This document shows positions 8,147 through 23,435 of a stretch of 64,000 nt of DNA, piece after piece (positions within the stretch are counted from its first letter, which is position 1; every line of letters begins with the position of its first letter). This DNA is from Leucobacter salsicius M1-8. GTDB lineage: Bacteria > Actinomycetota > Actinomycetes > Actinomycetales > Microbacteriaceae. The position numbers and the translations under genes are program-made. A model generated the notes under the pieces. It was not told the origin of the DNA. It ran no database searches and saw nothing but the letters and a program-made list of their open reading frames with translations. The stretch spans positions 62,001 through 126,000 of the forward strand of contig NZ_AOCN01000008.1 of the NCBI RefSeq assembly GCF_000350525.1. Reading direction: 5' to 3'.

Positions 8147-9316
8147 TCATTTGACCAGCTGTTCATAGGTGGCTCTCAATGACACCGCATAGGCCATCGC
8201 CATCTGATAAATTGAGGCGTCCTCGGGAAGGAACCTTGATGAGTGCAATGGCGGATCATCTGGGCTCTTGTTTGTTCCAACGAACATCATGAGCCCTGGG
8301 AATTTCTCAGTGTAGTAGGAGAAGTCATCAGCCCCGCAAGAGCGCATCGGCTCGACTACCGTAGCTCCAAATTCCTGCAGGGCAACGCTAACTGCATTCG
8401 CCACTCTCGGGTCGTTGTACAACACAGGCTCGCCCTGAATCAGTTCGACCTCGCCGCTGCAGTTGTAAGCCTCCGCGACCTCACTTACTATCCTGGTCAA
8501 CGTGAGGTAGGCCGTTTCACGATCTGTAGCATCCATCGTACGAATAGTGCCGGACGCAAACGATTCCGAGGGCAAGACGTTAGCGACGCTCCCAGCGCTC
8601 AGGTTGCCAAACGAGAGGACCGCCGGGCGCATTGGGTCGAGCGTTCGACTCACGACGGTTTGAGCAGCACCAATCACTGCCGCCATGGCCACGATTGAGT
8701 CGTCGGCCTGATGCGGATACGCAGCGTGCCCGCCGGACCCTCGAATCATAATGCGAAATTCGTCTGACGCTGCGTTGACCGCACCTGCCCCCACAGCAAT
8801 CCCACCTGCCGGAATCCGTGGATGCACATGGGCGCCAAACATGCTGTGCACATCATGGCGCTCCAGTATCTCGCTTTCACTAATGTCTCGCGCCCCCGAC
8901 GGATACGCCTCCTCCCGAGGCTGGAGGACCAGCAAGATTGCGAACGGCAGCGGAGTTCGGATCGCGGCGCGAGCAATTGCAAATGCGGCCGCCATATGGA
9001 TGTCATGTCCGCACGCATGCATAGCGCCGTTCGTTGATGAGAATTCCGCGCCAGTATCCTCCACGATTGGCAACGCATCCAGCTCTGCCCGCACACCAAT
9101 TGCTGGCCCGTCGGCAGGCCCAATCCGTACGACTCCACCGGTTTCCGCTACGGGTTCCCAGGTTGGATTCCCGAGCTCCTTCAAGATGAGATCCCGCGTC
9201 TCACTTTCGTTGCCCGAAACTTGTGGCGACTGATGAATTTGCCACCGCAGTTGCTGAGCACGCGGCATTTCCTCGAGGACTGCCTCAAAAAACTGAGCCC
9301 ACAGATCGCTCGTCAT
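8147..9316 (-). CDS. M20D-type metal-dependent amidohydrolase
   Basis: A 389-residue aminoacylase/hippurate-hydrolase-like enzyme. The metal and catalytic motifs are AELDALPI (78-84), HACGHD (100-105; C102 and H104 as ligands) and LQPREEA with the catalytic glutamate pair E135/E136. Later His residues occur in GAHVHP and LHSSRF. M20D enzymes hydrolyse N-acyl or N-aryl amino acids and related amides in the cytoplasm. It is the last gene of a minus-strand operon that starts with the ABC transporter ATPase at 14962, 39 nt after the glutamine-synthetase-like gene. That pairing suggests release of an acyl or glutamyl group added earlier in the pathway. Base composition is visibly lower in G+C than argF. 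Confidence 0.85.
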   Translation of the reverse strand: MTSDLWAQFFEAVLEEMPRAQQLRWQIHQSPQVSGNESETRDLILKELGNPTWEPVAETGGVVRIGPADGPAIGVRAELDALPIVEDTGAEFSSTNGAMHACGHDIHMAAAFAIARAAIRTPLPFAILLVLQPREEAYPSGARDISESEILERHDVHSMFGAHVHPRIPAGGIAVGAGAVNAASDEFRIMIRGSGGHAAYPHQADDSIVAMAAVIGAAQTVVSRTLDPMRPAVLSFGNLSAGSVANVLPSESFASGTIRTMDATDRETAYLTLTRIVSEVAEAYNCSGEVELIQGEPVLYNDPRVANAVSVALQEFGATVVEPMRSCGADDFSYYTEKFPGLMMFVGTNKSPDDPPLHSSRFLPEDASIYQMAMAYAVSLRATYEQLVK

Positions 9317-9355
9317 AGTCTTTTTGCTCTTCCTTCCGAAGCGATAGCTTCGGGC

Positions 9356-10672
9356 TTAGTACGCTTCGGCGTACGCGCGGTAGCGATCATCGGGGTCAAG
9401 GGCTGATGTGAATTCAATTTCAGCCAGTTTGACCACTCGGAACGTTTCGAGGAGTCGGCTAGGCAACCAACTCATGACCGTTTCATTTGCGAACAGTCCC
9501 TCAATGGCCACCTCAAGGGTGGAAGGCATGACTCCGTAGGTCGCAGCATCGAGGGTCTCCTGCGCAATCTCGGACAGGTCTCCTGACAGTACGGTAGGTG
9601 CTGCCAATTCTTCGGTGATTCCAGCCAGTCCCGCACGAATCAACACGCCCAGTGCAATCCATGGGTTTGAAGTGACATCAGCGCCTCGATACTCGAGGTT
9701 GTACTGCTTGTCGTGGTTCGCGCCTGGAGTGTTAAAAAGGGGGCAAATCCGAAGCAGAGCTTCGCGATTGTTTTCTCCCAAGAACATTCCGCCGACACTC
9801 CAGCGGCCCGGAGCCAAGCGCTCATATGACACTGCAGACGATGCAGTCAACACCTGGAGGGCTTCCGCATACTTCAAAATTCCTGCCGCGAACTTTCCCG
9901 CGGTTTCAGAGAGCCCGCCGGGACGGGACTTGTCAAAGGTAACCGGGGTCCCCGCAGCGTCAGTCAGACTCAAATGAATGTGAACACCATTACCCCCACC
10001 GTCCTCTTCGACGATCGGGCTAAATGTGGCTTCTTCCCCTTGCTCACGAACGACGTTTCGCACGATTTCCCTCAGCAAGATGGCGCGGTCCGCGGCTACC
10101 AATGCTGGAGCAGGGGCAATTGTGACCTCCCACTGACGATCACCAAATTCAGGAAGCCACATCTCTGGTTCAAGTCCAGCGTCCCGAAGCGCCTGAAGCA
10201 CCTTGGACCCCATAGGCTCATATGTGAGCAATGATTCGAGCGTGAATGGCTTGTTTCCAGGGACGCGATCCGCGTCCCGAAGCATAAACTCGTGCTCAAA
10301 TGACGAGACGACCCTCAGTCCAGTTTCGGCTTCGAAATCGCTCACCGCGTTGCGTAGAAATGTCCGGGGGCAGCAATCCCACGCACTCCCATCCGGGTTC
10401 ACAATGTCGCTCAGCAGAACGGTGACCGCCTGCCCGCCTCCCTCGTTGGTGACCTCTGACTGCGTCGAGGGGTCAGGAATCAGGCGAGTGTCACCAATCG
10501 ACCCGAACGGGTTTGGCGTAATAATTCTCCCAAATGGATCCAATGCGAGGTTCCCTGGCACCCAACCCGAGCCGGATCGTTTGTAAGCCTCGATCTCATC
10601 AGCAGGAAATGCGCGCCCCCTCACCTGGGCCACAAGGTCACAGGTGAGGATCGCAGCAACGGGAGTAGTCAT
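9356..10672 (-). CDS. Glutamine-synthetase-like gamma-glutamyl ligase
   Basis: A 438-residue member of the GS superfamily. Active-site features include SFEHEF (E126 and E128), NGVHIHLS (228-235), WSVGGMFLGENNREALLRIC and the NLEYRGADVTSNPW region. The N-terminal beta-grasp part differs from housekeeping GlnA and resembles the catabolic ligases (PuuA, IpuC, FluG C-terminal half), which join glutamate to an amine rather than to ammonia. No adenylylation loop tyrosine was identified. It sits between the RpiR regulator and the M20D amidohydrolase, and a FluG-N-like amidohydrolase is encoded in the same island. A role in gamma-glutamylating an imported or decarboxylation-derived amine is therefore likely, but the substrate is unknown. 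Confidence 0.82.
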   Translation of the reverse strand: MTTPVAAILTCDLVAQVRGRAFPADEIEAYKRSGSGWVPGNLALDPFGRIITPNPFGSIGDTRLIPDPSTQSEVTNEGGGQAVTVLLSDIVNPDGSAWDCCPRTFLRNAVSDFEAETGLRVVSSFEHEFMLRDADRVPGNKPFTLESLLTYEPMGSKVLQALRDAGLEPEMWLPEFGDRQWEVTIAPAPALVAADRAILLREIVRNVVREQGEEATFSPIVEEDGGGNGVHIHLSLTDAAGTPVTFDKSRPGGLSETAGKFAAGILKYAEALQVLTASSAVSYERLAPGRWSVGGMFLGENNREALLRICPLFNTPGANHDKQYNLEYRGADVTSNPWIALGVLIRAGLAGITEELAAPTVLSGDLSEIAQETLDAATYGVMPSTLEVAIEGLFANETVMSWLPSRLLETFRVVKLAEIEFTSALDPDDRYRAYAEAY

Positions 10673-10690
10673 TTGATTTCCTTAATTGAT

Positions 10691-11578
10691 CTATTCGTCG
10701 ACGGCGGCAATGCCGTCGATATTTTTGTCATGTAGAAGTTCTTCAACATCGTCATAGCGCCGCACACGTTCAACGGGGTCCGTCCCCAAGGCATCGACAA
10801 GAGATGCAATGAGCGTCTCCACAAGTGCAAATCCCGGGGTCATCGAATCGAAAGGTGACGCTGCAACCACCGCATTCGTGAGGAGGTAGTCAGAGTGTCG
10901 AGCCGCTGGCGACAGCCACGGGTCAGTAATCAACACGGTGCTTGCTTTTTGTGCCTTCGCCTGCCGAACGAATGCCACGGTCGACTCTTGATACCGGCGG
11001 TAGTCAAACGCGAATACAACGTCCTTCGGACCAATATCGAGAAGAGCAAACGCCCTGTCCTGCTGAGACATCTCGACATGGTTAATGTTTGGGCGCAGAT
11101 GCCGCAAGTGCATCGAAAGGTACTTGGCGAGGAGAATACTAAAGCGACCACCGGTGGTCCAAACTCGACGCTTCGCATTTGAGAGCAATGCAACGATGGC
11201 TTCGAAGTCTTCAATTGCAAGGCCAGAAAACGTTGCGTCAAGTCCTTGGTTCATAACTTGCTGTGATCGTTCAACTACCCCGTTAGAGCTTGCCGCAGTT
11301 GTCGAACGGGCATACATTGTGGCCGGCGAAGACGTCCGCGCAGCGATTTCTCCATGCAGGAGCTTCTGCATATCAGGGTATGAACCAATGTCCAGCTTTG
11401 AGAGCAAGCGGAGAACTGTCGGAGCACTCACATTTGCACGCTCCGCAAGCCGGTTCACGGGCTCGAGGCCGGCCACAGGGTAGTCCGCCAGTAGCGCGCG
11501 TGAAACTCGCTTTTCTGCGGGACTGAGTTGTTCATACGAACGCTTCAGAACTTCAGCAAGTGTCATTGGTTCATCCAT
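10691..11578 (-). CDS. MurR/RpiR-family transcriptional regulator
   Basis: A 295-residue protein with an N-terminal RpiR helix-turn-helix (about residues 5-78; LAERANVSAPTVLRLLSKL is the recognition part). A C-terminal SIS sugar/phosphate-isomerase fold follows (about 135-265; VWTTGGRFSILLAKYL). RpiR proteins usually act as effector-responsive repressors or activators of nearby catabolic genes. It lies inside the operon, 3 nt after the LivM-type permease gene, so it is co-transcribed with the genes it probably controls. The repeated ATGTAAC motifs in the two divergent promoter regions of this island are candidate binding sites. The SIS ligand is unknown; in amino-acid-related clusters it need not be a sugar. 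Confidence 0.88.
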   Translation of the reverse strand: MDEPMTLAEVLKRSYEQLSPAEKRVSRALLADYPVAGLEPVNRLAERANVSAPTVLRLLSKLDIGSYPDMQKLLHGEIAARTSSPATMYARSTTAASSNGVVERSQQVMNQGLDATFSGLAIEDFEAIVALLSNAKRRVWTTGGRFSILLAKYLSMHLRHLRPNINHVEMSQQDRAFALLDIGPKDVVFAFDYRRYQESTVAFVRQAKAQKASTVLITDPWLSPAARHSDYLLTNAVVAASPFDSMTPGFALVETLIASLVDALGTDPVERVRRYDDVEELLHDKNIDGIAAVDE

Positions 11579-11581
11579 GAA

Positions 11582-12616
11582 CTAGTTACCTTTCACACCA
11601 AGTTTTGGCCGCCCGAGCTCTCGAATCCCCATGATTCCGGTCGGTGCCTTGATCAGGACCAGGATAAGGATTGCGGACAGAACCAGGTCAGTCACCCCAC
11701 CGGGAAGCGCATATCCGCCCGTAAATTGTCCATCTTGGAGCCGTCGGAGGACTTCTTGGAGCACGCTGATAGACAGCGCTCCTACGACCGCACCGCTTGT
11801 TGACAGATAACCACCGATGACGATCATCATGATGAACCCAAAGGTCAGCGACAGGAAGAAAGTCCTTGACGAGAATGTTGTGAGGAATGCCGCATATAAG
11901 GCGCCTCCAGCGCCGCAGACTGCCGCACTGAGCACCCAAGCAAGGGCTCGGTGCCGTCCTATCGAGATACCAGAAGCCAGAGCCGCCTCAGGGTCTTCTC
12001 GAGAGGCCCGCAGCTGCAGACCACTACGGCTGTTCTTATACATCAGCGCGACGACCGCAGCTACTGAAGCACAGACAAAGACCACGAGGGGCGTCGTTGC
12101 CTTCGGGATGCCGATCATTGCCGAGGAGCCACGGGTCACATCGGTCCAGGAATTGATGACGGTGAACGTAATAACCAACAGTGCGAGCGTTGCGATTCCA
12201 GATTGCAAGCCACTCAGTCTGGCCATTGCTGGGGCAGTGAGCAAGGCATAAGTTGCTGCGCAGGCTGCCGCGACAAGGATTGCCACCGGGAACGGAGTTT
12301 CGATGTCCTTGAGGAACACCAGACCGTCAGGAAGCTTCGAAAACATAGAAGCTTTTATGCCTTTGGGGATCGTAAGAAAGGCAGTCACATAGGCGCCAAT
12401 TGCCATAAATGACACGTGCCCGAACGACATGATTCCTGAGTTGCCTGAGTAGATGGACAAACCGATGACCACCACTACCGAGATAAGGGCACCAATTGCG
12501 ACGCGCTCAATGATGGGGTCTGTAAGCACCCCCAACAGAGCTACTACCCCAATAATGGCGACCAGAAAGGCACCCGTGATGAGGTTCTGAGTTCGATTCT
12601 GACGGTAGAGCTTCAT
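11582..12616 (-). CDS. LIV-type ABC transporter permease (LivM-like)
   Basis: A 344-residue integral membrane protein with about nine hydrophobic segments and the LivM-type EAA loop (REDPEAALASGISIGRHRA, about residues 207-225). It forms the permease dimer with the LivH-like protein encoded just upstream; its ATG overlaps the end of that gene by 4 nt. It belongs to the hydrophobic amino-acid uptake (HAAT) family. These importers take branched-chain amino acids but also amides, urea, choline-like or aromatic compounds. Its position in a catabolic operon argues for import of that pathway's substrate, not for general leucine uptake. Confidence 0.9.
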   Translation of the reverse strand: MKLYRQNRTQNLITGAFLVAIIGVVALLGVLTDPIIERVAIGALISVVVVIGLSIYSGNSGIMSFGHVSFMAIGAYVTAFLTIPKGIKASMFSKLPDGLVFLKDIETPFPVAILVAAACAATYALLTAPAMARLSGLQSGIATLALLVITFTVINSWTDVTRGSSAMIGIPKATTPLVVFVCASVAAVVALMYKNSRSGLQLRASREDPEAALASGISIGRHRALAWVLSAAVCGAGGALYAAFLTTFSSRTFFLSLTFGFIMMIVIGGYLSTSGAVVGALSISVLQEVLRRLQDGQFTGGYALPGGVTDLVLSAILILVLIKAPTGIMGIRELGRPKLGVKGN

Positions 12617-13494
12617 GACACACGCACCTTTACTCCAGACAACAGACCCTGGGGTCGGATTACGAGGATCCCAATCACAGCGGCATACAGGAAAGCGTCC
12701 CGGAATGCGATGAGATAGGTAGGGAGGAAGGTCTCAAGAAGCACGGTTGCCATTCCGAGCAAGAGCCCGCCAAGTGCCGCACCTTTCAGGCTCCGCATCC
12801 CGCCGATCACAGCACCCACTACACCGATCAACAGCGGCTGGAGTCCCATTTCCGCGCCTACGGCACCCTGCTTAGCGACAAGCACGATTGCAGAAATGGC
12901 GGCAATTGCTCCCGAGATTGCAAATGCGCTCATGATCACAAATGATCCTTTAACGCCCAATACCTTTGCCATCTCGAAATCCTCAGCTGCGGCACGCAAC
13001 TGCATTCCCAAACTGGTCCTCTGCATTGTGACTGCAAGAAGTGCAATCATGGCGGCGCTGAGTACAAGAGTCAGTATTTGGAGCATGCTTATTCGTGCAC
13101 CAAATATTTCGACTGAATGCTGCAAGAACGGCTGTGGCGGAACCCCTTGTACTTTGGGCAGAGCCGTCATACGTGCGATCGCCTGTAGAGCGGAACTTAC
13201 TGCGAAGGATGCGATCATCAGCGTGACAGGGTCAGCATTTCTCAGTTTCCGGAACGCAACCCGCTCGGTAAGTACAGAAATCACAATTCCAACGAGAATC
13301 GCAAGCGGCCAACTGATCCACCAAGGTGACTCGCGAAAAATCAACAATACGATTGCCGCGGACATGATGATCTCGCCATAGGCAAAATTCATGAGCCCCA
13401 GGATGCCAAAGAGCAGAGCAATTCCCAGGGTGAGGAGTGCGTAAAACGTACCAAGACCCAGCATGTCGACTACAAGTTGAATCCACATGGTCAA
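12613..13494 (-). CDS. LIV-type ABC transporter permease (LivH-like)
   Basis: A 293-residue inner-membrane permease with about eight transmembrane segments. Typical LivH features are the N-terminal GLGTFYALLTLGIALLFGIL and NFAYGEIIMSAA, and a cytoplasmic coupling loop with LRAAAEDFEMAKVLGV (about 173-188). Its ATG overlaps the LivF stop (ATGA) and its own stop overlaps the LivM start, so all three are translationally coupled. It forms the transport channel of the island's importer together with the LivM-like subunit. Substrate is unknown, as for the other components. Confidence 0.9.
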   Translation of the reverse strand: MTMWIQLVVDMLGLGTFYALLTLGIALLFGILGLMNFAYGEIIMSAAIVLLIFRESPWWISWPLAILVGIVISVLTERVAFRKLRNADPVTLMIASFAVSSALQAIARMTALPKVQGVPPQPFLQHSVEIFGARISMLQILTLVLSAAMIALLAVTMQRTSLGMQLRAAAEDFEMAKVLGVKGSFVIMSAFAISGAIAAISAIVLVAKQGAVGAEMGLQPLLIGVVGAVIGGMRSLKGAALGGLLLGMATVLLETFLPTYLIAFRDAFLYAAVIGILVIRPQGLLSGVKVRVS

Positions 13495-14234
13495 AGCTCC
13501 TTGTCTTCAGGTCGACCCAACGGGGAGAAGCCGAGGTACTCCACCACTTCCGCGTTCGCCGCAAGCTCTTCAGCGTTGCCGCTGCCAATGATTCGGCCTG
13601 GCGCTTGAACCACATACGAACGGTGGGAAATAGCGATCGAACGAACGGCATTTTGTTCAACCAACAGGATGGTCATACCTTCGGCGTTGAGTTGAGCAAT
13701 CACGTCAAAAATCAAATCAACAATGATTGGCGCAAGCCCCAAAGTAGGTTCATCGAGCAGCAGGAGATTGGGTCGGATCATAAGCGCCCGTGCAATGGCA
13801 AGCTGCTGCTGTTCACCTCCCGAAAGCAGGCTCGCGCCTCGTGACCAGTACTTGCGGAGAATGGGGAACCTGTCCAGTTGTGCCTCAATATCTGCGTCAA
13901 CACCGGCCTTATCCTTTCGAGAAATGGCACCCAGCCGAAGATTCTCCCCCACGGTCAGCGTCCCAAACACTCCTCGATCCTCGGGAACATAGGCGATCCC
14001 AGCGGGAATACGTGCGGCCCCCTTCGCTGTAAGGTCGAGCGCACCGTAGGTAACAGCGCCGGAGAGCGGTGAAACCACGCCAGCGATCGTCTTTAGAACT
14101 GTGGACTTACCCGCGCCGTTCTGGCCCAGGAGTGAAACAATTTCACCTTCCTTGACCGAGAATGAGGCTCCTTGGACAGCGACGATGGACTTTCCGTAGC
14201 GAACGAACAGATCACTGACTTCTAATGTGGTCAT
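13491..14234 (-). CDS. LIV-type ABC transporter ATPase (LivF-like)
   Basis: A 247-residue nucleotide-binding protein. Walker A GQNGAGKST is at 37-45, the Q-loop lies in the usual place, the signature LLSGGEQQQLAIARAL begins about residue 135, and Walker B LLLLDEP is followed by a D-loop and the switch His region (LLVEQNA). It powers the importer together with the LivG-like ATPase encoded 5 nt upstream. All catalytic motifs are intact, in contrast to its partner, whose signature motif is altered. Confidence 0.92.
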   Translation of the reverse strand: MTTLEVSDLFVRYGKSIVAVQGASFSVKEGEIVSLLGQNGAGKSTVLKTIAGVVSPLSGAVTYGALDLTAKGAARIPAGIAYVPEDRGVFGTLTVGENLRLGAISRKDKAGVDADIEAQLDRFPILRKYWSRGASLLSGGEQQQLAIARALMIRPNLLLLDEPTLGLAPIIVDLIFDVIAQLNAEGMTILLVEQNAVRSIAISHRSYVVQAPGRIIGSGNAEELAANAEVVEYLGFSPLGRPEDKEL

Positions 14235-14239
14235 CTTCG

Positions 14240-14962
14240 CTACCCCTTTCCGAAATAGATCTCAATGACCTTCGGGTCTGTGCGGATGGTTTCCGGGTCG
14301 CCCGTGATGACCGTTTCACCGCTGTCGAGCACATGCAGTCGGTCACAGGTGCCCATAACCACTGCCATATCGTGTTCAACGAGAAGCACTCCCAGCCCAC
14401 GTTCCCTGGCGAATGAGGCGATTATCTTCACCAGTTCGAGCGCTTCAGCTTCATTCTGACCAGCGGCTGGCTCATCGAGGAGCAGATACTTGGGCTGCAA
14501 AGCGATTGCACGAGCAATTCCTACGCTGCGGACTTGCCCAGCAGGCACGGCGTCTGCTCGCACTTCGGCGAGTGCTTCAAGCCCAAGCTCGGCAATGGTC
14601 TCGATTGCGACTCGTCTTGCATCTTTGCGCCGCATTCCAGAGCCGAGACATGCAGCTTCAACATTTTCGGCGACCGTGAGCCGTCCAAAAACTTTGACGC
14701 TCTGAAAGGTGCGAACAAGGCCAGACCTGGCTCTGCTTCGGATTGACCTGCGGGTGACGTCCACACCATCGAGAATGATTCTGCCGGCGGACGGCCTCAA
14801 GACGCCGCTCAGCATGTTGAGCGTTGTCGTTTTACCAGAGCCATTGGGCCCGATGAGGCCAAGCACTTCTCCTGGCTCCAACCGAAGACTCACGCCATCG
14901 ACAGCTCGAACCCCGTCAAAATACATGCCACCATCTTGCAGAACTAGGGCTTGGTCAGTCAT
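14240..14962 (-). CDS. LIV-type ABC transporter ATPase (LivG-like) with altered signature motif
   Basis: A 240-residue ATPase with Walker A GPNGSGKT (38-45), Walker B YLLLDEP (159-165) and switch His in LLVEHDMAVV. The ABC signature, normally LSGGQ or LSYGQ, reads VPAGQ here (139-143) with VRSVGIARAIA after it. One of the two ATP sites in the heterodimer may therefore be degenerate, as in asymmetric ABC systems. It is the first gene of the minus-strand operon LivG-LivF-LivH-LivM-RpiR-GS-M20D. Upstream lies a 256-bp A+T-rich region shared with the divergent amidohydrolase gene. Confidence 0.88.
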   Translation of the reverse strand: MTDQALVLQDGGMYFDGVRAVDGVSLRLEPGEVLGLIGPNGSGKTTTLNMLSGVLRPSAGRIILDGVDVTRRSIRSRARSGLVRTFQSVKVFGRLTVAENVEAACLGSGMRRKDARRVAIETIAELGLEALAEVRADAVPAGQVRSVGIARAIALQPKYLLLDEPAAGQNEAEALELVKIIASFARERGLGVLLVEHDMAVVMGTCDRLHVLDSGETVITGDPETIRTDPKVIEIYFGKG

Positions 14963-16406: not shown

Positions 16407-16423
16407 TCCCGCCATCTGATTGT

Positions 16424-17668
16424 TTAGGCTGCGCAGGGGTTGCCATCGCCGAGGTCGGGAACTACCTCAGCCGTGTGCTGCTCTACGAAAATCGCCTTGC
16501 CTTCTTCAACCTTTACGATCGACATAGGGAAATCGATGATCTTGTGGCAGGTTTTCGAGAAGTAGGTCATTTCACCAATAGGGGTGTCGACTGGACCGGC
16601 CAGCTGGAGCGCATCCCGAATTGCGGGACCATCGTTCAGGTCCGCACCGGTGAGTGCGTTCTGAATCGCGAGCATCAAGTTGTACCCCAACAGCGCGTAG
16701 GAGCTGGAGGGCCCTGCTCCAGTCTCTTTGCTGAAATCAGCTACGAACGCGTTCAGGTCTTCCTCGGTTGAAGCGCCCGAGCAGTATTCATAGCAAGCAA
16801 ATGCCGTGTAGTACACGTCATTCGCGTTGCCCAGAATGTCTAGAAGCGTCTGGCCATCCAATGCGTTGGGCCCAACGAGTGGAACGTCAATGCCCGCTTC
16901 GCGAATCTGTTTCATCGCCGTCGCTCCCGCGGGGTTCCAACTTGCAACATAGATGAAGTCAGGCTTCTCCGAGAGAGCCTTGATGCTAGAAATCTGAGCG
17001 CTCACATCGATATTGTCACCGCCCGGAAAACTATCGGTGCCGACGATATTTCCGCCAAGTTCTTCGAATGCACCGACAAAGTAAGCGCCCGCGGACTTGG
17101 TGTACTCAATGCTTTCATCCTGGAGGACATAGGCATTCTTCCAGCCCTGATCGAAGGCCCAAGACGCACCCACGGAGCCTTCGACATCGGTGCCAGCGTT
17201 GCCACTGAAACTGAAGTCGCCGATGGTGGTCAGGTCTGCCGTCTTCGGGTCGCCTGCACAAATCGAGATTGCAGGAACCTCTGCAGCTTGAGCTGCGATC
17301 AGCGCTGGTGAGCTCAGATCAAAATCGCAAGGTGTCACGATGATGTCCACGCCGTCCTGCAGAAACTCCTGCGCGACCACACCAACGGTCTCTGGATCAG
17401 ATGCAACATCCTTCTGAATGACCGTAATCTTCTTGCCGTCGATTCCACCGGCGGCGTTGATCTCATCAACGGCAAGGAGGGCAGCGGCGCCTGGTTCTAC
17501 GTCGAACCCAGCCATGTTTCCGCTTTGCGACAGTGCAAAGCCAATCTTGATGCCCTCAGCATTATCATCGCTGCTTCCGGTGCTTGACGAACACCCCGCT
17601 ACGACAAGTAGTGTCAGTGCGGCTCCAGTGGCGACAATGCCACGGATTCCTTTTGATTTCCAATTCAT
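16424..17668 (-). CDS. LIV-type ABC transporter substrate-binding lipoprotein
   Basis: A 414-residue secreted binding protein of the LivK/periplasmic-binding-type-I family. The N-terminus MNWKSKG is followed by a hydrophobic stretch and the lipobox LVVAGC with C26 as the lipidated cysteine. The mature part begins with Ser/Asp-rich residues and IKIGFALSQSGNMAGFD. I chose ATG 17668 because it gives a standard lipoprotein signal; an ATG at 17725 overlapping the aminotransferase stop would add a non-signal-like extension. It supplies the importer encoded at 11582-14962 but is transcribed with the aminotransferase and oxidoreductases instead. The ligand is unknown; the binding-pocket region is intact. 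Confidence 0.9.
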   Translation of the reverse strand: MNWKSKGIRGIVATGAALTLLVVAGCSSSTGSSDDNAEGIKIGFALSQSGNMAGFDVEPGAAALLAVDEINAAGGIDGKKITVIQKDVASDPETVGVVAQEFLQDGVDIIVTPCDFDLSSPALIAAQAAEVPAISICAGDPKTADLTTIGDFSFSGNAGTDVEGSVGASWAFDQGWKNAYVLQDESIEYTKSAGAYFVGAFEELGGNIVGTDSFPGGDNIDVSAQISSIKALSEKPDFIYVASWNPAGATAMKQIREAGIDVPLVGPNALDGQTLLDILGNANDVYYTAFACYEYCSGASTEEDLNAFVADFSKETGAGPSSSYALLGYNLMLAIQNALTGADLNDGPAIRDALQLAGPVDTPIGEMTYFSKTCHKIIDFPMSIVKVEEGKAIFVEQHTAEVVPDLGDGNPCAA

Positions 17669-17721
17669 ATTCTCAATCCTCATTGTTGGTAATGCAGTGG
17701 GTGAACTGAACTCACGTTGGG

Positions 17722-19023
17722 TCAAATAGAAGCTGCAGCGGCGAACGCGCCGCGTACGGCATCGATCGCAGCATCAATGTCGTCGTTGGTCGTCGAGGCG
17801 TTGAGACGCCGGTCGCCTGTGGCCGCCGTGGTTTCCAGAACTCGCTGCTTCATCAGTGATTGCTGGTATGCGGCGTAACGATCTGTATTTACATCGAGAG
17901 TGTCACGGAAGTTTCGTGGCGCTTCCGCACGGAAATAGACTGCCCACTCAGAGCCGAGTCCCGTCACGACCGCTTCAACTCCGGTGTCGACGATGGCTCG
18001 GGCGTATCCTTCGCGAAGACGCTCTCCGAGTTCATACAACCGACCAATGGTGTTCTCGCTTTCCATAATGTCAAGCGTCGCGTTGCCCGCAGCCATCGCG
18101 TATGGATTGGCGTTGTACGTGCCGTCAATTGTCACTTCGTTCTGGGCGTAGGCACCCAGATGATCCATAAACTCGTCGCGCCCTGCCAAGCCCGCCAACG
18201 AAAAACCGTTGGCAACTGCTTTACCAAAAGCGGTGAGATCCGGGGTGACTCCCGTTACTTCCTGAATGCCACCTAGCGCTGCACGAAAGCCAGTCTTCAC
18301 CTCGTCAAGGACGAAGATCGTGCCGTGTTGCGTGCAAAGATCCCGCAGGAGTTCCAGAAATCCCGGTGCTGCGGCCACACATCCGTAGCTGTGCACATAA
18401 CCTTCAGCGAATGCCGCGGCAAGCTCTGCACCATGCGCGTTGAACGCGGCGCGCAGACCTTCAGCGTCGTTCCATTCGACTACGATCACATCACCAGTCA
18501 CGGCGGGGTGGAGCCCCGCACTATTTACAGTGTTGAGGGGAGATTCTTTGGTGAGCCCTGCTCGAGAGCCGCCAACAGCCACATGGTCACTCCACCCGTG
18601 GTAGCTTCCGTGAAACTTCAGAACTTTCATGCGCCCAGTTACTGCGCGGGCAATATGAGAAGCATGCATTGTCGCATCGGTTCCCGACGTACAGAAGGCT
18701 ACCTTTTCGGCAGACGGCATGAGTCTGGTGATCTTTTCACCGAGCTCAACTTCGCCCAGCTGTGGCCCTACTCCAGTGAGGTCGCAGGTGTTCACCGATT
18801 TGTAAACTGCATCATTGACCCGGGAGTCTGAATGCCCGAGCACAATCGGCCCCCAGGCGTTGAGAAAGTCCAGGTACTGGTTCCCCTCGCGATCCCACAT
18901 GTAGGCACCTTTGGCCTTGACAAACACTTGTTCGAAGCCAAGTCGGTGCCCCGACGACGCTCCTCTGGGAATAACCTTTCGGGCTTCCTCCCACTGCTGG
19001 AAAGACGGTGTTTCAGTCGACAT
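17722..19023 (-). CDS. Class III PLP aminotransferase (glutamate-1-semialdehyde aminomutase-like)
   Basis: A 433-residue fold-type I PLP enzyme of the omega-aminotransferase group. The phosphate-binding SGTDAT is at 113-118, YHGWSD at 141-146, the cofactor aspartate D240 in FVLDEVKTG, and the Schiff-base lysine K268 in FGKAVANG. It resembles glutamate-1-semialdehyde 2,1-aminomutase and beta-amino-acid or omega-amine aminotransferases. A haem-synthesis role is unlikely because it sits in a catabolic operon. It would move an amino group from a terminal amine or beta-amino acid to a keto acid. Its ATG has AAAGGA upstream. It lies between the GMC oxidoreductase gene and the binding-protein gene. 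Confidence 0.86.
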   Translation of the reverse strand: MSTETPSFQQWEEARKVIPRGASSGHRLGFEQVFVKAKGAYMWDREGNQYLDFLNAWGPIVLGHSDSRVNDAVYKSVNTCDLTGVGPQLGEVELGEKITRLMPSAEKVAFCTSGTDATMHASHIARAVTGRMKVLKFHGSYHGWSDHVAVGGSRAGLTKESPLNTVNSAGLHPAVTGDVIVVEWNDAEGLRAAFNAHGAELAAAFAEGYVHSYGCVAAAPGFLELLRDLCTQHGTIFVLDEVKTGFRAALGGIQEVTGVTPDLTAFGKAVANGFSLAGLAGRDEFMDHLGAYAQNEVTIDGTYNANPYAMAAGNATLDIMESENTIGRLYELGERLREGYARAIVDTGVEAVVTGLGSEWAVYFRAEAPRNFRDTLDVNTDRYAAYQQSLMKQRVLETTAATGDRRLNASTTNDDIDAAIDAVRGAFAAAASI

Positions 19024-19079
19024 GTGTCGATCCTTTCGTTCGCAAAACTACGTTGTTTAAGTTCTCGGCCCAAGCCTTG

Positions 19080-20504
19080 CTATACCAGCGCGCCGCTTCG
19101 ATACGCTGCGCTCATCCGTTCGGCGAGCATGACAACCGGCAAATGAGTATTCGCGCTCGGCACCTCCGGAAGAATCGAGGCGTCCCAGATCGAAAGCCCT
19201 TCGAAACCGAAGACATTTCCTAGTTCGTCAACGACCGCGTCCGGGTCGTTGGCCTGGCCCATCCGAGCCGTGCCTACTGCGTGGAAGTAGTCCCCCACGT
19301 ATTGAGACAGCCATCTTTCAAAGAACTCGTCGTCCTCGATCGCTGAGAGTGGCGTGCCCTTTTCATCAATGAACACCTCTTCAACTATCGGCGCAAAGGC
19401 TTCACCGCTGAGTACTTTCGCGACCGCGGCAAGTGCCTCACGCATGGCCTTTTTATCATCCGGGTGCGCAAGCATCTCCTCGTCAACGATGGGCGGCGCA
19501 AGTAGATTCTTGGGATTAAGGCGCAACGACCCCACAGACTTGGTGCGCATCACTGCTGCCATGAGTAGTCCGTGGGTTCCGGGTAGCAGCTCCCCATGAA
19601 GGGGAAGAAGATGGATGTCTCCTGTTCCCACTGAGGACGAAAGTCGCATCACCGCACCGATACACGGAATCTCTCGATTTGCTTCACGGCATTCTGGCGT
19701 CATCGTGAAATAGACCGAAGCCGCTGGATGGTCCTGGAGCCCACGTCCGATTCCTGAATGTGTCATACCGCTGCGGAGGAGAATACTGGGCGTCTCAAAG
19801 GTGCCTGCACAAAGGATTACGCGATCTCCACGCAGTTCCTCTCCCCCGACGAGCACGACGCCCACAACCCTATTGCCGTCAAACATGAGCCGGTCAACTT
19901 GGGAATCGGGTCGAACGATTAGGTTCTCGCGTGCACGAGCTGGTTCGAGCCATAGCTCCCGTGAGGAACGTCGACCTTCCCGATCAGCGGTGCGGTAAAG
20001 CAGAGCACTCCCGTCCTCGGCTGTGTAGGAATCCACTGACTCTGCAAGTCCCAGCACACGACCTGAAGCTAACAACGCTTGATCCACAGGAGTCTGTTCT
20101 TCTTGCGTGGACCGAGTGAGGGTCGACTGAAGCTTTGCAAACCAGGGTTCGACGTGTAACCAAGACCACCTACTCAGACCGTACTGGCTTGCATAGTTGT
20201 CGTAATCAGACGGAAGTCCGGGCAGCGCGAGCATCGCGTTCGTAGAGGCGGAACCGCCAACGCCGCGACCTCTCTGGTACAGCAGCCGCTTACCACCGTG
20301 GACCTTGCTCGCGAATAGGTCCGGATAAAATGCTTGCCTGTGTTCCAACGCATCAAGCCAGTTCACTGACAGTATCTCAGCGTCACCACCCTGGTCGGCA
20401 CCTGCATCGAGCAAGATGACGTTCCTGTCCCCGTCTTCGGAGAGCCGAGCGGCAACGGTGCATCCCGCTGATCCAGCACCAACAATGATTACAGTTTCAG
20501 TCAC
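19080..20504 (-). CDS. GMC-family FAD oxidoreductase
   Basis: A 474-residue glucose-methanol-choline oxidoreductase. The dinucleotide motif VGAGSAG is at 8-14, the GMC signature region GRGVGGSASTNAML near residue 80, and the C-terminal catalytic elements are HAVGTARMG near 427 and SANTHLP near 455 (His-Asn type active site). Family members oxidise primary alcohols to aldehydes; one subgroup (MftG) works with mycofactocin. It lies 25 nt downstream of an MftD-like gene. At under 500 residues it is on the short side for choline dehydrogenase. A role in oxidising an amino alcohol or hydroxylated intermediate fits the operon but is inferred. Confidence 0.86.
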   Translation of the reverse strand: MTETVIIVGAGSAGCTVAARLSEDGDRNVILLDAGADQGGDAEILSVNWLDALEHRQAFYPDLFASKVHGGKRLLYQRGRGVGGSASTNAMLALPGLPSDYDNYASQYGLSRWSWLHVEPWFAKLQSTLTRSTQEEQTPVDQALLASGRVLGLAESVDSYTAEDGSALLYRTADREGRRSSRELWLEPARARENLIVRPDSQVDRLMFDGNRVVGVVLVGGEELRGDRVILCAGTFETPSILLRSGMTHSGIGRGLQDHPAASVYFTMTPECREANREIPCIGAVMRLSSSVGTGDIHLLPLHGELLPGTHGLLMAAVMRTKSVGSLRLNPKNLLAPPIVDEEMLAHPDDKKAMREALAAVAKVLSGEAFAPIVEEVFIDEKGTPLSAIEDDEFFERWLSQYVGDYFHAVGTARMGQANDPDAVVDELGNVFGFEGLSIWDASILPEVPSANTHLPVVMLAERMSAAYRSGALV

Positions 20505-20529
20505 GATATTGCCTTCTGGAGTTAGTCAA

Positions 20530-21714
20530 TTACTGGGTTGGCGGGACAAAGAAGCCTTGATTGAGCACCATCAAGTCGTCTTTCGTAAGGTCATGGATTG
20601 AGGCCTTCCCAATGCCATACAACGTTTCACGAATGCCGTTCTTCAGGATGTCGAGGACTTCGTATACCCCCGCTTCGCCTGAGACAGCCAGCCCGTACAA
20701 GTAAGCCCGTCCAATGAAGACAGCCTTCGCCCCAAGAGCAACTGCCTTCACCACGTCAGACCCACGCCGGATACCTCCGTCCGCCATAACATCCACTTGG
20801 TCTCCGACGGCGTCCACGATGTAGGGAAGGTATCTCAGCGGCGAAGGGCTGCCATCAATGTTGTTGCCACCGTGGTTCGAGATAGATATGGCATCGGCGC
20901 CCAGATCTACCGCGAGCTTTGCGTCCTTGATGGTATTGATACCCTTCACCATGAAGGGACCTCCCCAAAGCTCACGGATCCATTTGATGTCGTCCCAAGT
21001 CGGGGCAGGAGTCCGCTCAAACTCACCCCAGGCTGCCCCGAAATACGGCACGTCGTTTTTGTCTCTGCCCCAAAGGTTGGGCACCTTTACATCCGGTATA
21101 CGCCCCCGGATAAGGAACTCAGAAAGCCAGCGCGGTCGTGCGATCGCGGCAGGTGCAAAACTGGCCATCGTTTTCAGACCCATGTTCGACGGAGGCGCCG
21201 GCGGCACGCCCCAATCACGGCGCGGTGTATGTGACCAGTCAAGCGTCACAATGAGCCCTTTTGCTCCTTGTTCTTTTGCATCCATGACACGCTTTTCAAT
21301 GTCAGCTTTGGACCCAACCCAATAGAGCTGAAAGAAAATGTCCTGGTTCACTTTGAGAAGGTCGGTCAACGGATCAGTGGCCCATGAGCTGAGACCCATC
21401 GCAGTACCTTGGCGGGCAGCTGCCGAGGCAGCTGCAACTTCACCGCCAGGGTGAATGGCTTGAGCACCAACCGGTGAAACGATAACTGGAAAGTCAATCT
21501 TGGTACCCATGATCGATGTACTCATATCGAATGAGGTGGGTCGGTTAAAGATCGTCGGAGAGAACCCCAACTCATCGAATGCGCGTACATTATCAGCCGG
21601 AGTGAGGCCCTTCTCATTGCCGGCCTTTACTGCGAGCCACACAGGCTTGGGTAGGCGACGTTTGGCCATGCGTTCAGCCTCAGCAAGGTTCTTGAAAGGA
21701 ACTCGAGTGCTCAT
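20530..21714 (-). CDS. MftD-like FMN-dependent alpha-hydroxy-acid/amine oxidase
   Basis: A 394-residue FMN TIM-barrel protein of the lactate-oxidase family. Active-site elements are ITV-type FMN strands, K257 in FMVKGI, the catalytic base H281 in ISNHGGNNIDG, and ADGGIRRGSD near 312-320. Classical 2-hydroxy-acid oxidases have Arg right after HGG (HGGRQ), which holds the substrate carboxylate. Here it is Asn, the same change I recall in MftD, the mycofactocin enzyme that oxidatively deaminates an amino-lactam. From memory, similarity to mycobacterial MftD (Rv0694) extends along the whole length, for example AKRRLPK near the N-terminus. No mftA, mftB, mftC, mftE or mftF is nearby, so it is probably a substrate oxidase of the island, not a cofactor-maturation enzyme. 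Confidence 0.85.
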   Translation of the reverse strand: MSTRVPFKNLAEAERMAKRRLPKPVWLAVKAGNEKGLTPADNVRAFDELGFSPTIFNRPTSFDMSTSIMGTKIDFPVIVSPVGAQAIHPGGEVAAASAAARQGTAMGLSSWATDPLTDLLKVNQDIFFQLYWVGSKADIEKRVMDAKEQGAKGLIVTLDWSHTPRRDWGVPPAPPSNMGLKTMASFAPAAIARPRWLSEFLIRGRIPDVKVPNLWGRDKNDVPYFGAAWGEFERTPAPTWDDIKWIRELWGGPFMVKGINTIKDAKLAVDLGADAISISNHGGNNIDGSPSPLRYLPYIVDAVGDQVDVMADGGIRRGSDVVKAVALGAKAVFIGRAYLYGLAVSGEAGVYEVLDILKNGIRETLYGIGKASIHDLTKDDLMVLNQGFFVPPTQ

Positions 21715-21929
21715 GTCTTGCTTATCTCCATTGATCTAATACGTGGCGACCAGAGTCGCTTCGACGGCTTCGTCTTCCCCACACTTCATCGAACAAACAT
21801 TAGATTCAGGTGGCCTGATGACAACTATCTACTATTAGTTAGAGTTTTTCAAGACCTACATTTGCTTGAGAACGTTCTGAAATGTAACATTTGTGAAACT
21901 AGGTGTTGTTCCAACGATGGAGGCCAGCA
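21715..21929. promoter_or_regulatory. Second divergent regulatory region of the island
   Basis: 215-bp A+T-rich region between the MftD-like gene (minus) and the decarboxylase gene (plus). It contains the palindrome AAATGTAACATTT (21880-21892) preceded by TCTGAAAT (21876-21883). Both words recur in the other divergent promoter at 15089-15156, suggesting one regulator for both units. GGAGG at 21919-21923 is the decarboxylase ribosome site. Confidence 0.6.
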
Positions 21930-23435
21930 ATGACGCGCACACCACTAGACCAGTCGACCACTCCCTATGCCAGCGCACTTCAGGCGCAGGCAGCAAAGGT
22001 ATCCGTCAACCTCATGGTCCCGGGCCACGGCGCAACTTCCGAGGGGCTCGCATCAGAGCTCGCAGACTTTTGTGGCGAGCGGGCGCTAGCCCTCGATATT
22101 CCACCGCTGATCAACGGCATCGATGTCGGGCCAGCTTCTCCGCTCGTCCAGGCCACGGAGTTGGCTGCTGAAGCATGGGGGGCCCAGAAAACTTGGTTCT
22201 TGGCAAACGGCGCTTCACAAGCTAACCGCATGGCAGCTCTCGCCATTGCCGGCTTAGGTCGAGGAGACTCGGTCATCGCGCAACGCAGTGCTCATTCCAG
22301 CTTTACCGACGGTGTAATCCTGGGAGATCTCCTTCCCCTCTTCGTTATCCCCAGCATCGACACGGCCCGCGGGATCAACCACGGCGTGCATCCCGATGCT
22401 CTGCATAGTGCTCTCACCAGCGCAGAGAATGATGGCATCCCGGTCTCAGCCGTCTACATCATCAGCCCAAGCTATTTCGGCGCTGTCGCCGATGTGACAG
22501 GGCTCTCCCGCGTCGCCCATGAGCATGGCGTACCACTTGTCGTTGACGGGGCTTGGGGTCCACATTTTGGTTTTCATGAGGATCTCCCTGAGTCACCCAC
22601 ACGTCTAGGAGCAGATCTCACTGTTTCAAGCACGCACAAACTGGCAGGCAGCCTCACTCAATCAGCTATGCTCCACCTCAGCGACGGACCCTTCGCCAAC
22701 CGGCTCCTTCCACTCCTGGAACGGGCCTACATGACCACTCAAACCACGAGTCCAAGCGCGCTTCTCCTCGGATCTTTGGACATTGCGCGACGCTCGATGG
22801 CGACGGGGCACGACCTCATTGGAGCTAGCATCGTTGAAGTCGAAAAGTTCAGGGATCAAGTGCGCGCCAGCGACACATACACAATCATCTCTGACGGTTT
22901 CTCCGATTTTGATGACATCATCGCCCATGATCCCATGCGCGTATCAATCGATGTGTCTGCAACAGGTTTGAGCGGGCACAAGATTCGCGACATTCTTGAT
23001 TCCGAGTTCGATATTCATCTTGAGATCTCAACTGCTCAAGCCGTCGTAGCTTTCATCGGCCCCGGCAAATTTCCTGATCTCAATCGCTTCGCCAATGCGT
23101 TGCTTGAGATAGCGAGTCGTCTTGATCCTCACCAGGTCCCGCCGGCACTAGATTTTCCCCCGTTACCCCAGCCTGGGCCGATGATCATGCGACCGAGAGC
23201 AGCTTACTTCTCGCAGTATGTGACGATACCGGCGGATCAGGCAGCCGGGCGTGTGTCTGCAGACGCGCTGGCCGCCTATCCGCCCGGCATCCCCAATGTC
23301 ATTCCTGGCGAGGCAATCACTCCGGACATGATTAAGTTCCTTCAGCAGGTAGCAGCCTCGCCGATCGGCTATGTCCGTGGAGCTCTCGACAGCAAAGTCT
23401 CACACTTCCGAGTCGTAATCGAACCGGGAGAGTAG
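21930..23435 (+). CDS. Orn/Lys/Arg decarboxylase-fold PLP enzyme
   Basis: A 501-residue fold-type I PLP protein of the group III basic-amino-acid decarboxylases (YaaO/CadA-like, without the wing domain). It begins with a PGHG motif (NLMVPGHGATSEG). It has NGASQAN for phosphate binding, the ring-stacking His in QRSAHSS (H122), cofactor aspartate D206 in VVDGAWGPH and the Schiff-base lysine K237 in SSTHK. The usual C-terminal domain follows. I chose ATG 21930 with GGAGG 6 nt upstream over an ATG at 21903. It faces away from the MftD-like gene and shares its promoter region. The substrate may be a basic or other amino acid whose amine product feeds the gamma-glutamyl ligase; this is inference. 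It is the last gene of the low-G+C block. Confidence 0.85.
   Translation: MTRTPLDQSTTPYASALQAQAAKVSVNLMVPGHGATSEGLASELADFCGERALALDIPPLINGIDVGPASPLVQATELAAEAWGAQKTWFLANGASQANRMAALAIAGLGRGDSVIAQRSAHSSFTDGVILGDLLPLFVIPSIDTARGINHGVHPDALHSALTSAENDGIPVSAVYIISPSYFGAVADVTGLSRVAHEHGVPLVVDGAWGPHFGFHEDLPESPTRLGADLTVSSTHKLAGSLTQSAMLHLSDGPFANRLLPLLERAYMTTQTTSPSALLLGSLDIARRSMATGHDLIGASIVEVEKFRDQVRASDTYTIISDGFSDFDDIIAHDPMRVSIDVSATGLSGHKIRDILDSEFDIHLEISTAQAVVAFIGPGKFPDLNRFANALLEIASRLDPHQVPPALDFPPLPQPGPMIMRPRAAYFSQYVTIPADQAAGRVSADALAAYPPGIPNVIPGEAITPDMIKFLQQVAASPIGYVRGALDSKVSHFRVVIEPGE

What the first reader, a model, noticed from the sequence alone, without database searches (positions are those of the whole stretch)
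8147..23435. Low-G+C island encoding an uncharacterised catabolic pathway with its own importer and regulator
Thirteen consecutive genes between argF and a core hypothetical gene have visibly lower G+C (a sample line at 12961 has 32 of 60 G/C; one at 43561 has 42 of 60). They include every part of a pathway: LIV-type importer with lipoprotein, RpiR regulator, PLP decarboxylase, GS-like gamma-glutamyl ligase, MftD-like FMN oxidase, GMC oxidoreductase, class III aminotransferase, M20D and FluG-N-like hydrolases. No integrase or transposase is visible. The combination is not one I recognise from a named pathway. A Puu-like scheme (decarboxylate, gamma-glutamylate, oxidise, transaminate, hydrolyse) is inference.
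Basis: partly seen in the sequence, partly recalled or inferred. Interest (0 to 1): 0.85.

Follow-up and report, generated by a model that had tools for sequence, protein, structure and literature searches.

The report
Swappable amine-breakdown gene cluster
A set of 13 neighbouring genes in a bacterium of the family Microbacteriaceae looks like a self-contained kit for importing and breaking down an unidentified amine by tagging it with glutamate; it includes a flavin enzyme that a standard model would label a mycofactocin-cofactor enzyme, and it sits at a chromosomal spot where related species carry either nothing or a different version of the kit.

Summary
In detail: 13 genes at 8147-23435 have G+C 0.557 against 0.655 in the rest of the window; the lowest of 100 15.3-kb windows in a 400-kb genome sample is 0.620. 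A foreign insertion is unlikely: three congeners (one split over two contigs) carry the same genes beside argF at G+C 0.66-0.73. The slot is empty in 20 of 38 congener loci examined, and eight congeners hold a different cassette (type A) with the same core. The ligase tree separates the cassettes; the weakly supported decarboxylase tree mixes them, suggesting exchange. The window copy is best read as a low-G+C allele acquired by homologous recombination (inferred). Function: most likely gamma-glutamylation-dependent amine catabolism (PA5508/GoaS-type ligase, FluG-type amidohydrolase, M20D hydrolase), with candidate RpiR operators in both divergent promoters. The unusual part is the oxidation module: its flavoenzyme passes NCBI's pre-mycofactocin-synthase (MftD) cut-off, yet the six cluster-bearing genomes lack MftC and the six proteins form their own clade. 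Substrate unknown: some evidence favours an aromatic amine, some a basic amino acid or polyamine. New variant of a known kind.

The parts
8147..9316 (-). M20D amidohydrolase; candidate N-acyl / gamma-glutamyl amide hydrolase
   Evidence: TIGR01891 244.6 bits (cut-off 153.75), Peptidase_M20; neighbour of the ligase in many clusters
9356..10672 (-). Glutamine-synthetase-like gamma-glutamyl amine ligase of the PA5508 (PauA7) kind
   Evidence: Best PDB match 4hpp, 314 bits against 112 for the next; GlnA 161 bits against cut-off 429, GGputSyn 231 against 650
10691..11578 (-). RpiR/MurR-family regulator (HTH_6 + SIS)
   Evidence: Pfam; conserved in both cassette types
11582..12616 (-). LIV-type permease, LivM-like
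   Evidence: reading of sequence; orthologues 79-82% in G789 and G810
12613..13494 (-). LIV-type permease, LivH-like
   Evidence: reading of sequence; orthologues 89-90% in G789 and G810
13491..14234 (-). LIV-type ATPase, LivF-like
   Evidence: reading of sequence; orthologues 83-84%
14240..14962 (-). LIV-type ATPase, LivG-like
   Evidence: reading of sequence; orthologues 81-87%
15107..15153 (.). Candidate RpiR operators in the LivG/FluG-N divergent promoter: ATATGTAACA (15107-15116) and palindrome GTACCGTACGTTACA (15139-15153)
   Evidence: binding not shown
15219..16361 (+). FluG-N-type amidohydrolase with complete binuclear metal site (H19, H21, K172, H231, H267, D321; also Y177)
   Evidence: 2QPX alignment 150.5 bits, ligands as listed for 2QPX in PMC6478659 (passages), motif positions
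16424..17725 (-). LIV-type substrate-binding lipoprotein; likely start 17668 (MNWKSK..., lipobox VAGC by reading)
   Evidence: Peripla_BP_6 169 bits; start checked; alignment to Leu/Ile/Val-binding protein
17722..19023 (-). Class III aminotransferase of the glutamate-1-semialdehyde-aminomutase-like group
   Evidence: PRK00062 328 bits, below cut-off 398
19080..20504 (-). GMC-family FAD oxidoreductase
   Evidence: Pfam GMC N (108.8 bits) and C (96.1); best PDB match 4udp, 160 bits, next 6f97, a 5-(hydroxymethyl)furfural oxidase; MftG 182.6 bits, below cut-off 387
20530..21714 (-). MftD-like FMN oxidase in a genome without MftC
   Evidence: TIGR03966 541.8 bits over cut-off 470.85; no MftC over cut-off in genome; grouped with the five other cluster copies, support 100/100; residues
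21880..21889 (.). Candidate RpiR half-operator AAATGTAACA in the MftD/decarboxylase divergent promoter
   Evidence: one of only 2 matches in 64 kb, 0.02 expected
21903..23435 (+). Short Orn/Lys/Arg-family PLP decarboxylase (likely start 21930)
   Evidence: OKR_DC_1 161.5 bits and OKR_DC_1_C 34 bits; alternative start; occurs with both cassette types in the same slot
7168..8091 (-). argF, left flank; its 5' end is inside the low-GC3 tract
   Evidence: GC3 0.53-0.60 at its start; argF next to M20D in G789, G810 and G812
24033..24851 (+). HAD-family core gene, right border of the slot
   Evidence: match in 53 of 54 genus genomes; next to argF, with no displayed cluster-gene hit between, in 20 of 38 loci

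Best explanation
It is a chromosomal, exchangeable catabolic cassette at the argF-HAD slot of one Microbacteriaceae genus. Proposed working: (1) the Liv importer takes up the substrate; (2) where an amino acid is the substrate, the OKR-type decarboxylase turns it into an amine; (3) the PA5508-like ligase spends ATP and glutamate to cap an amine as a gamma-glutamyl amide; (4) the MftD-like FMN oxidase, the GMC oxidase and the aminotransferase oxidise or deaminate the carbon skeleton of the capped or uncapped amine; (5) the FluG-N and M20D amidohydrolases release glutamate and the product; (6) RpiR binds TGTAAC-type sites in both divergent promoters. Shown by sequence: families, catalytic residues where stated, gene order, conserved sites, absence of MftC. 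Inferred: reaction order, substrate, regulation. The window's low-G+C copy most likely replaced a normal one by homologous recombination from a lower-G+C relative (inferred).
For: Conserved unit: the 13 genes in the same order in G789 and G810, and split over two contigs in G812; 12 of 13, with one extra gene and no decarboxylase found from 9 kb left to 14 kb right, in G746. Ligase closest to PA5508, which papers describe as a ligase for aromatic monoamines, for monoamines/polyamines, or for 'aromatic amine substrates (e.g. spermidine, putrescine)' (passages). FluG-N keeps every metal ligand. AWATGTAACA occurs twice in 64 kb, both in the cluster's divergent promoters, 0.02 expected, 0 of 100 shuffles reach 2. 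The palindrome GTAHCGNNNRTTACA has one match in the own genome, at this cluster; its 9 matches in the 185 loci then held (2.12 Mb, overlapping loci included, two of the 9 being the own region) all lie in such promoters. No MftC in the six cluster-bearing genomes. Exchange of cassettes: type A is one clade (98/100) in the ligase tree, whereas 0 of 200 bootstrap trees of the decarboxylase separate A from B.
Against: No activity is known for any of these proteins, and percent identity to PA5508 was not measured. No aldehyde dehydrogenase was found among the nine scanned products, so the route after oxidation is incomplete. The operator motif was drawn from these same promoters, so only its rarity elsewhere is informative; in 16 genomes it occurs 0-2 times and the reversed control 0-3 times (own genome: 1 and 2), so one hit alone is at chance level, and no exact match sits at the cluster in G746, G703, G813, G774, G797, G486, G701 or G800. 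In the decarboxylase tree only 1 of 8 inner branches is strongly supported and the supported branches alone do not exclude a single origin of each type; G789 is missing from the ligase tree. G746 lacks the decarboxylase nearby, so decarboxylation is not part of every version. No low-G+C donor was found.
Confidence: 0.62

Rival explanations
1. Recently acquired foreign genomic island inserted between argF and the HAD gene.
For: G+C 0.557 against 0.654 in the genome sample, with nothing as low in the 100 windows tested; empty slot in 20 of 38 congener loci.
Against: Three congeners carry the same genes beside argF at G+C 0.66-0.73. Own-to-G810 protein identities are 63.5-90.4% in the cluster and 77.7-87.6% in the flanks; the cluster genes that are lower (M20D 63.5, decarboxylase 71.1, FluG-N 71.8) are about as low between G810 and G789 (65.7, 74.9, 71.0). 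The low-GC3 tract continues into argF. No recombinase among the nine scanned products and no tRNA at the edges. All 325 plasmid records matched by the MftD-like protein are under 60% identity; the best (53%) is annotated mftD.
Confidence: 0.1
2. Polyamine pathway of the Puu kind for putrescine/cadaverine made by the decarboxylase (lysine or ornithine as substrate).
For: OKR-family decarboxylase; gamma-glutamylputrescine synthetase is the top NCBIfam model for the ligase (231 bits); PA5508 is called a monoamine/polyamine ligase in one paper and another names spermidine and putrescine among its substrates (passages); an ornithine aminotransferase (476 bits, cut-off 378) sits in the G746 version.
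Against: Score far under the GGputSyn cut-off of 650; no PuuC or PuuD model hit among the nine products scanned and no PuuB model hit, though the GMC protein has a weak DAO match (34.5 bits) beside much stronger GMC matches; the MftD-like enzyme has no place in Puu. (Odds raised from 0.25 to 0.27 on rereading.)
Confidence: 0.27
3. Aromatic (phenylethylamine-type) amine pathway feeding homoprotocatechuate.
For: Ligase closest to PA5508, described as an aromatic-(mono)amine ligase. In G703 a FAH-family gene, HpaE and HpaD abut the cluster; HpaD/HpaE lie near related clusters in G637 (same genus as G703) and Agrococcus baldri. A tyramine oxidase subunit B homologue (571 bits, cut-off 362) lies about 17.5 kb from the G703 cluster. 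MftD's known substrate is itself made from Val-Tyr (passage).
Against: HpaD hits in only 5 of 215 sequences searched, one of them the own genome's HPA cluster on another contig and two the same Agrococcus contig; G703 and G637 are one genus, so two independent cases at most. The passage that calls PA5508 an aromatic-amine ligase gives polyamines as examples. Liv importer and OKR decarboxylase do not point to aromatics. (Odds lowered from 0.30 to 0.28 on rereading.)
Confidence: 0.28
4. Mycofactocin-related: the MftD-like and GMC proteins make or recycle mycofactocin.
For: TIGR03966 over cut-off in all six cluster copies.
Against: No MftC over cut-off in any of the six genomes; separate group on a long branch; GMC under the MftG cut-off, and MftG is reported almost only in genomes with mycofactocin genes (PMC11778925, passages).
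Confidence: 0.03

Closest known systems
FluG (Aspergillus) and bacterial GS-like/amidohydrolase gene pairs
   Same: Same two enzymes: 2QPX-type amidohydrolase with all metal ligands, and PA5508-type ligase (PMC6478659 passages).
   Different: Separate genes here, in a cluster with importer, decarboxylase and oxidases; FluG acts in fungal development and its metabolite is unknown.
PA5508 (PauA7) / GoaS-class gamma-glutamyl amine ligases
   Same: Closest solved relative of the ligase by sequence, 314 bits.
   Different: Percent identity and the gene neighbourhood of PA5508 were not examined here.
Streptomyces GlnA4 ethanolamine route (proposed)
   Same: Logic: glutamylate, oxidise, hydrolyse (PMC6529630 passage).
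   Different: There a predicted dehydrogenase, an aldehyde dehydrogenase and a formylglutamate-amidohydrolase-family enzyme are proposed; here FMN/GMC oxidases, FluG-N and M20D.
MftD, pre-mycofactocin synthase
   Same: Family model over cut-off; Asn in place of the Arg that follows the catalytic His in 2-hydroxy-acid oxidases, in 6 of 6 cluster proteins and 25 of 25 comparison MftDs.
   Different: No MftC in the genomes; Arg165 where the 25 have Gly (23) or Ala (2); Trp (5) or Tyr (1) at 111 where 24 of 25 have Phe; own group in the tree.
Paenarthrobacter aurescens TC1 cluster (L027)
   Same: Liv importer genes, FluG-N, M20D, GS-like, RpiR and decarboxylase (50% identity) together.
   Different: Distant ligase (29%), an ArgE/DapE-family hydrolase and a flavin amine-oxidase-like gene (by reading); no MftD-like or GMC hit displayed in the 16.9-kb locus.

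Membership tests
Gamma-glutamyl amine catabolic cluster (PA5508/GoaS kind) | GS-like ligase closer to an amine ligase than to glutamine synthetases | tested here: met
   4hpp (PA5508) 314 bits, next 112; under the GlnA cut-off
Gamma-glutamyl amine catabolic cluster (PA5508/GoaS kind) | Amide hydrolase encoded nearby to release glutamate | tested here: met
   M20D over TIGR01891 cut-off; FluG-N metal site complete; activity on gamma-glutamyl amides not shown
Gamma-glutamyl amine catabolic cluster (PA5508/GoaS kind) | Ligase forms gamma-glutamyl amides of an organic amine | not testable with these tools
   needs enzyme assay
Puu putrescine pathway | PuuA equivalog | tested here: not met
   GGputSyn 231 of 650 bits
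Puu putrescine pathway | PuuB/PuuC/PuuD homologues in the cluster | tested here: not met
   no such model hit among the nine products scanned; GMC protein has a weak DAO match (34.5 bits) but is GMC by 108.8 and 96.1 bits; the four unscanned genes are transporter genes by reading
Mycofactocin system | MftC radical SAM maturase in the genome | tested here: not met
   best hit 42 bits, cut-off 265; none in the six cluster-bearing genomes
Mycofactocin system | MftD family model | tested here: met
   541.8 bits, cut-off 470.85: shows that this model alone does not prove the system
FMN 2-hydroxy-acid oxidase with carboxylate substrate | Active-site Arg after the catalytic His (HG-R) | tested here: not met
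   HGGN; Asn284. The role of this Arg in binding the carboxylate is recalled
Mobile genomic island | Atypical composition | tested here: met
Mobile genomic island | Recombinase or tRNA attachment site at an edge | tested here: not met
   no recombinase among nine scanned products, no tRNA at the edges; direct repeats at the edges were not searched
Mobile genomic island | Absent from relatives at that site | tested here: inconclusive
   empty in 20 of 38 congener loci, but the same genes occupy the site in congeners
LIV amino-acid-binding proteins | Ligand-contact residues of LivJ (Ser79, Thr102, Tyr150, Tyr202, Glu226; recalled) | tested here: inconclusive
   on the alignment the Tyr150 position is kept; those of Ser79, Thr102, Tyr202 and Glu226 read Phe, Lys, Trp and Asn; low-similarity alignment, residue list recalled

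The most novel reading that the evidence does not exclude
The MftD fold is not confined to mycofactocin biosynthesis. Here it is a catabolic flavoenzyme that oxidatively deaminates an amine next to an amide (an aminoacyl- or gamma-glutamyl-arylethylamine, chemically close to AHDP, which is a cyclised valyl-tyramine-like lactam), paired with a GMC oxidase. If so, mycofactocin's MftD and this enzyme share an ancestral amide/amine-oxidase activity, and FluG-type ligase-amidohydrolase pairs would gain a first defined substrate class.
Probability: 0.13. Interest if true: 0.72.

Novelty: new variant of a known kind. Interest (0 to 1): 0.52.

Why it matters
It gives a testable bacterial context for two open questions: what FluG-type amidohydrolase/ligase pairs act on, and what MftD-family flavoenzymes can do outside mycofactocin. 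It shows that a standard annotation model scores as pre-mycofactocin synthase a protein in genomes where no MftC was found. It also documents a chromosomal slot that is empty in some congeners and holds alternative catabolic cassettes in others, and shows that a low-G+C island can be an allele of a locus shared with congeners rather than an insertion.

Tried and rejected
Foreign island: rejected after finding normal-G+C copies beside argF in congeners. Mycofactocin link: rejected by MftC absence and the tree. Puu pathway: not met. Plasmid carriage: all plasmid records matched by the MftD-like (325), FluG-N (10) and decarboxylase (28) proteins are under 60% identity. Promoter/terminator consensus scan: at chance level, 7 found against 6.9 expected and 18 against 15.0. 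SBP across the phylum: 3 of 396 genomes at E<=1e-60, the own one included; of the other two, G941 has liv genes beside it and G973 a GS-like hit (28%) about 5 kb away, neither the cluster; uninformative. Literature: two searches for the FluG/NodGS pairing, one on PA5508, one on glutamylation pathways, one on amidoligases, two on mycofactocin/MftD, one on gamma-glutamyl amine catabolism with Arthrobacter/decarboxylase terms and one for RpiR + GS + amidohydrolase + GMC + gamma-glutamyl terms (no papers). I saw listings, and passages only of five papers (PMC6478659, PMC11335346, PMC6529630, PMC7491314, PMC11778925); in what I saw this gene set is not described. The library is open-access papers only. 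Structure prediction was not used: its rule names the window and loci of certain tools, most orthologues came from other tools, and single-sequence models would have added little. The palindrome test is partly circular (see the Against line). Dropped or limited: a mis-called 999-aa ORF of L029 was used as a query and its hits ignored, and only the N-terminal piece of the FAH gene was used; tblastn hits under 60 bits or 70 bits were not displayed, so 'not found' there means not above that; the 38 congener loci were chosen for contig length, not at random; the MftD tree used 25 comparison rows, not every hit.
Full report
Observation. The window lies in a 3.19-Mb genome. The family (f1) is Microbacteriaceae: genome G606 of the same family has an 8-kb stretch identical to the named Agrococcus baldri contig. 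The genus name was not established. Thirteen ORFs fill 8147-23435 between argF and a HAD-family gene. Island G+C is 0.557, rest of window 0.655. In 399,482 bases sampled from the same genome the lowest of 100 15.3-kb windows is 0.620. GC3 is 0.54-0.62 throughout, and the drop begins inside the 5' end of argF.

The locus in the genus. The HAD gene was found in 53 of 54 genus genomes. I fetched the region beside it in 38 of them (chosen for contig length, not at random) and searched for cluster genes. In 20 of 38 argF and HAD are neighbours with no displayed cluster-gene hit between them; in 6 the slot holds a type A cassette; in 2 (G789, G810) a type B cassette like the window's; in 10 argF is not in the fetched stretch. 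Two more genomes fetched separately, G486 (L077) and G806 (L184), have type A in the slot. G812 has type B beside argF, split over two contigs and not joined to its HAD gene, which lies on a third. By whole-genome search the type B MftD-like protein (83-100% identity) occurs in 4 of 54 genus genomes (own, G789, G810, G812), and type A ligases (57-60%) in 10 of 54; no genome has both cassettes at these thresholds. In G701 and G800 the slot itself is empty and the type A ligase lies about 5 kb beyond the HAD gene.

Type A is ligase-RpiR-aminotransferase-M20D-FluG-N-permease; the decarboxylase stands divergently in 6 of the 8 slot copies and was not found in G813 and G486. Type B is the window arrangement. 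In the ligase tree type A is one clade (98/100; three type B rows, G789 missing). In the decarboxylase tree A and B are mixed and 0 of 200 bootstrap trees separate them; but only 1 of 8 inner branches is strongly supported, the supported branches alone do not exclude one origin of each type, and the outgroup branch is long. The simplest reading is that cassettes have been exchanged beside a shared decarboxylase; it is not proven.

Why the island is not foreign in the usual sense. In G810, G789 and G812 the same genes sit beside argF with G+C 0.66-0.73 per gene. Own-to-G810 protein identities are 63.5-90.4% inside the cluster and 77.7-87.6% for tyrS, argH, argF and HAD; the low ones (M20D, decarboxylase, FluG-N) are about as low between G810 and G789. 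The window copy is thus the same locus with a different base composition. The 38 genus loci range from G+C 0.59 to 0.71, so a lower-G+C congener as donor is plausible; none was found with the cassette. Local drift without exchange cannot be excluded.

Outside the genus. G746 (other genus; locus G+C 0.58-0.60) has 12 of the 13 genes in the same order at 52-72% identity, no decarboxylase within the stretches fetched, and an extra gene that passes the ornithine aminotransferase model. G703 has the importer-SBP-aminotransferase-GMC-MftD module beside a different ligase-FluG-N-M20D set, so the module appears to move as a block. The smaller core of ligase, FluG-N, M20D and RpiR recurs in Arthrobacter, Agrococcus, Paenarthrobacter and Nocardioides. 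Of 398 family genomes 30 have a FluG-N match at E<=1e-60, the own genome included.

The enzymes. The ligase is nearest PA5508. FluG-N aligns to 2QPX with all six metal ligands and the tyrosine listed in PMC6478659 (passages). The MftD-like protein keeps the positions of glycolate oxidase His254, Lys230, Asp157, Tyr129 and Arg164, but has Asn where 2-hydroxy-acid oxidases have Arg257 and a non-tyrosine near Tyr24 (numbering and residue roles recalled; the Tyr24 register is one or two residues uncertain). The 25 comparison MftDs share the Asn. Cluster proteins differ from them at 20 diagnostic columns, among them Arg165 against Gly/Ala. The six cluster copies score 514-558 bits on TIGR03966 (cut-off 470.85), against 663-704 for four other MftDs tested, one of them G812's second MftD.

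Mycofactocin. MftC over cut-off: 18 of 25 genomes tested; the seven without are the cluster-bearing G000, G789, G810, G746 and G703, the type A genome G486, and G764 (81% complete, with two MftDs of about 50-53%). In one search MftC is present in G770 and G792 and absent in G797 and in G812, the sixth cluster genome. G797 and G812 do hold a mycofactocin-type MftD without MftC, so an MftD without MftC is not unique to this cluster. The unrooted tree puts the six cluster proteins on one side of a branch (100/100) against 25 others.

Regulation. AWATGTAACA occurs twice in the window, at 15107-15116 and 21880-21889, each in a divergent promoter of the cluster; 0.02 expected. A palindrome GTAHCGNNNRTTACA drawn from promoters of types A and B has one match in the own genome, at 15139-15153 of the window, and its 9 matches in the 185 loci then held all lie in LivG/FluG-N or permease/decarboxylase intergenic regions. 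Genome-wide it occurs 0-2 times per genome, like its reversed control (0-3); it sits at the cluster in 4 of 4 type B and 4 of 10 type A congeners (own included) and not in G746 or G703. HexR, another RpiR-family protein, is recalled to bind a similar TGTAAT-ATTACA site. I read these as candidate RpiR operators.

Substrate. Two lines conflict. Aromatic: PA5508 is described as an aromatic-monoamine ligase; in G703 a FAH-family gene, HpaE (664.6 bits, cut-off 638) and HpaD (434.5, cut-off 321) end about 100 bases from the cluster's RpiR ORF, and a tyramine oxidase subunit B homologue and an N-methyltryptophan-oxidase-like gene lie 16-19 kb away; HpaD/HpaE also lie within about 10 kb of a related cluster in G637 (same genus as G703) and within 4 kb in Agrococcus baldri. 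The own genome has HPA genes, but on another contig. Basic amino acid or polyamine: OKR-family decarboxylase, ornithine aminotransferase in the G746 version, and papers that call PA5508 a monoamine/polyamine ligase or name spermidine and putrescine (passages). The SBP alignment suggests that several LivJ ligand contacts are replaced (contacts recalled), which argues weakly against an ordinary branched-chain amino acid.

Verdict. A real, conserved catabolic cassette, most likely of the gamma-glutamyl amine kind, with an unusual MftD-like/GMC oxidation module, at a slot that is empty or differently filled in congeners. Family-level functions are well supported; order of reactions, regulation and substrate are inference.

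Noticed in passing
L083, L084, L094 (genomes G135, G177, G065): Pairs of divergently oriented MftD genes; in each pair one copy has Ser for the Tyr129 position and Asn for the Asp157 position, a diverged second MftD of unknown role.
   Followed up: partly
NCBIfam TIGR03966 on window 20530-21714 and loci L065, L116, L138, L139, L180: The pre-mycofactocin-synthase model passes its cut-off in genomes without MftC, so annotation by this model alone would overcall mycofactocin.
   Followed up: yes
G797:C13 and G812:C29 (L173, L176): Mycofactocin-type MftD genes in genomes where no MftC was found: loss, assembly gap, or another use.
   Followed up: partly
L187 (own genome, contig C22:60001-80000) 9182-15820: HpaD (83% to G703), HpaE and a FAH-family gene, with transporter-like genes around them by reading, on another contig than the island.
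   Followed up: partly
L188 and L205 (own genome): Other low-G+C patches, with 1-kb minima of 0.514 and 0.526, not examined.
   Followed up: no
L187 2-421 and L077 18102-19358: Genes that look like IS110-type transposases (by reading) in the own genome and in G486.
   Followed up: no
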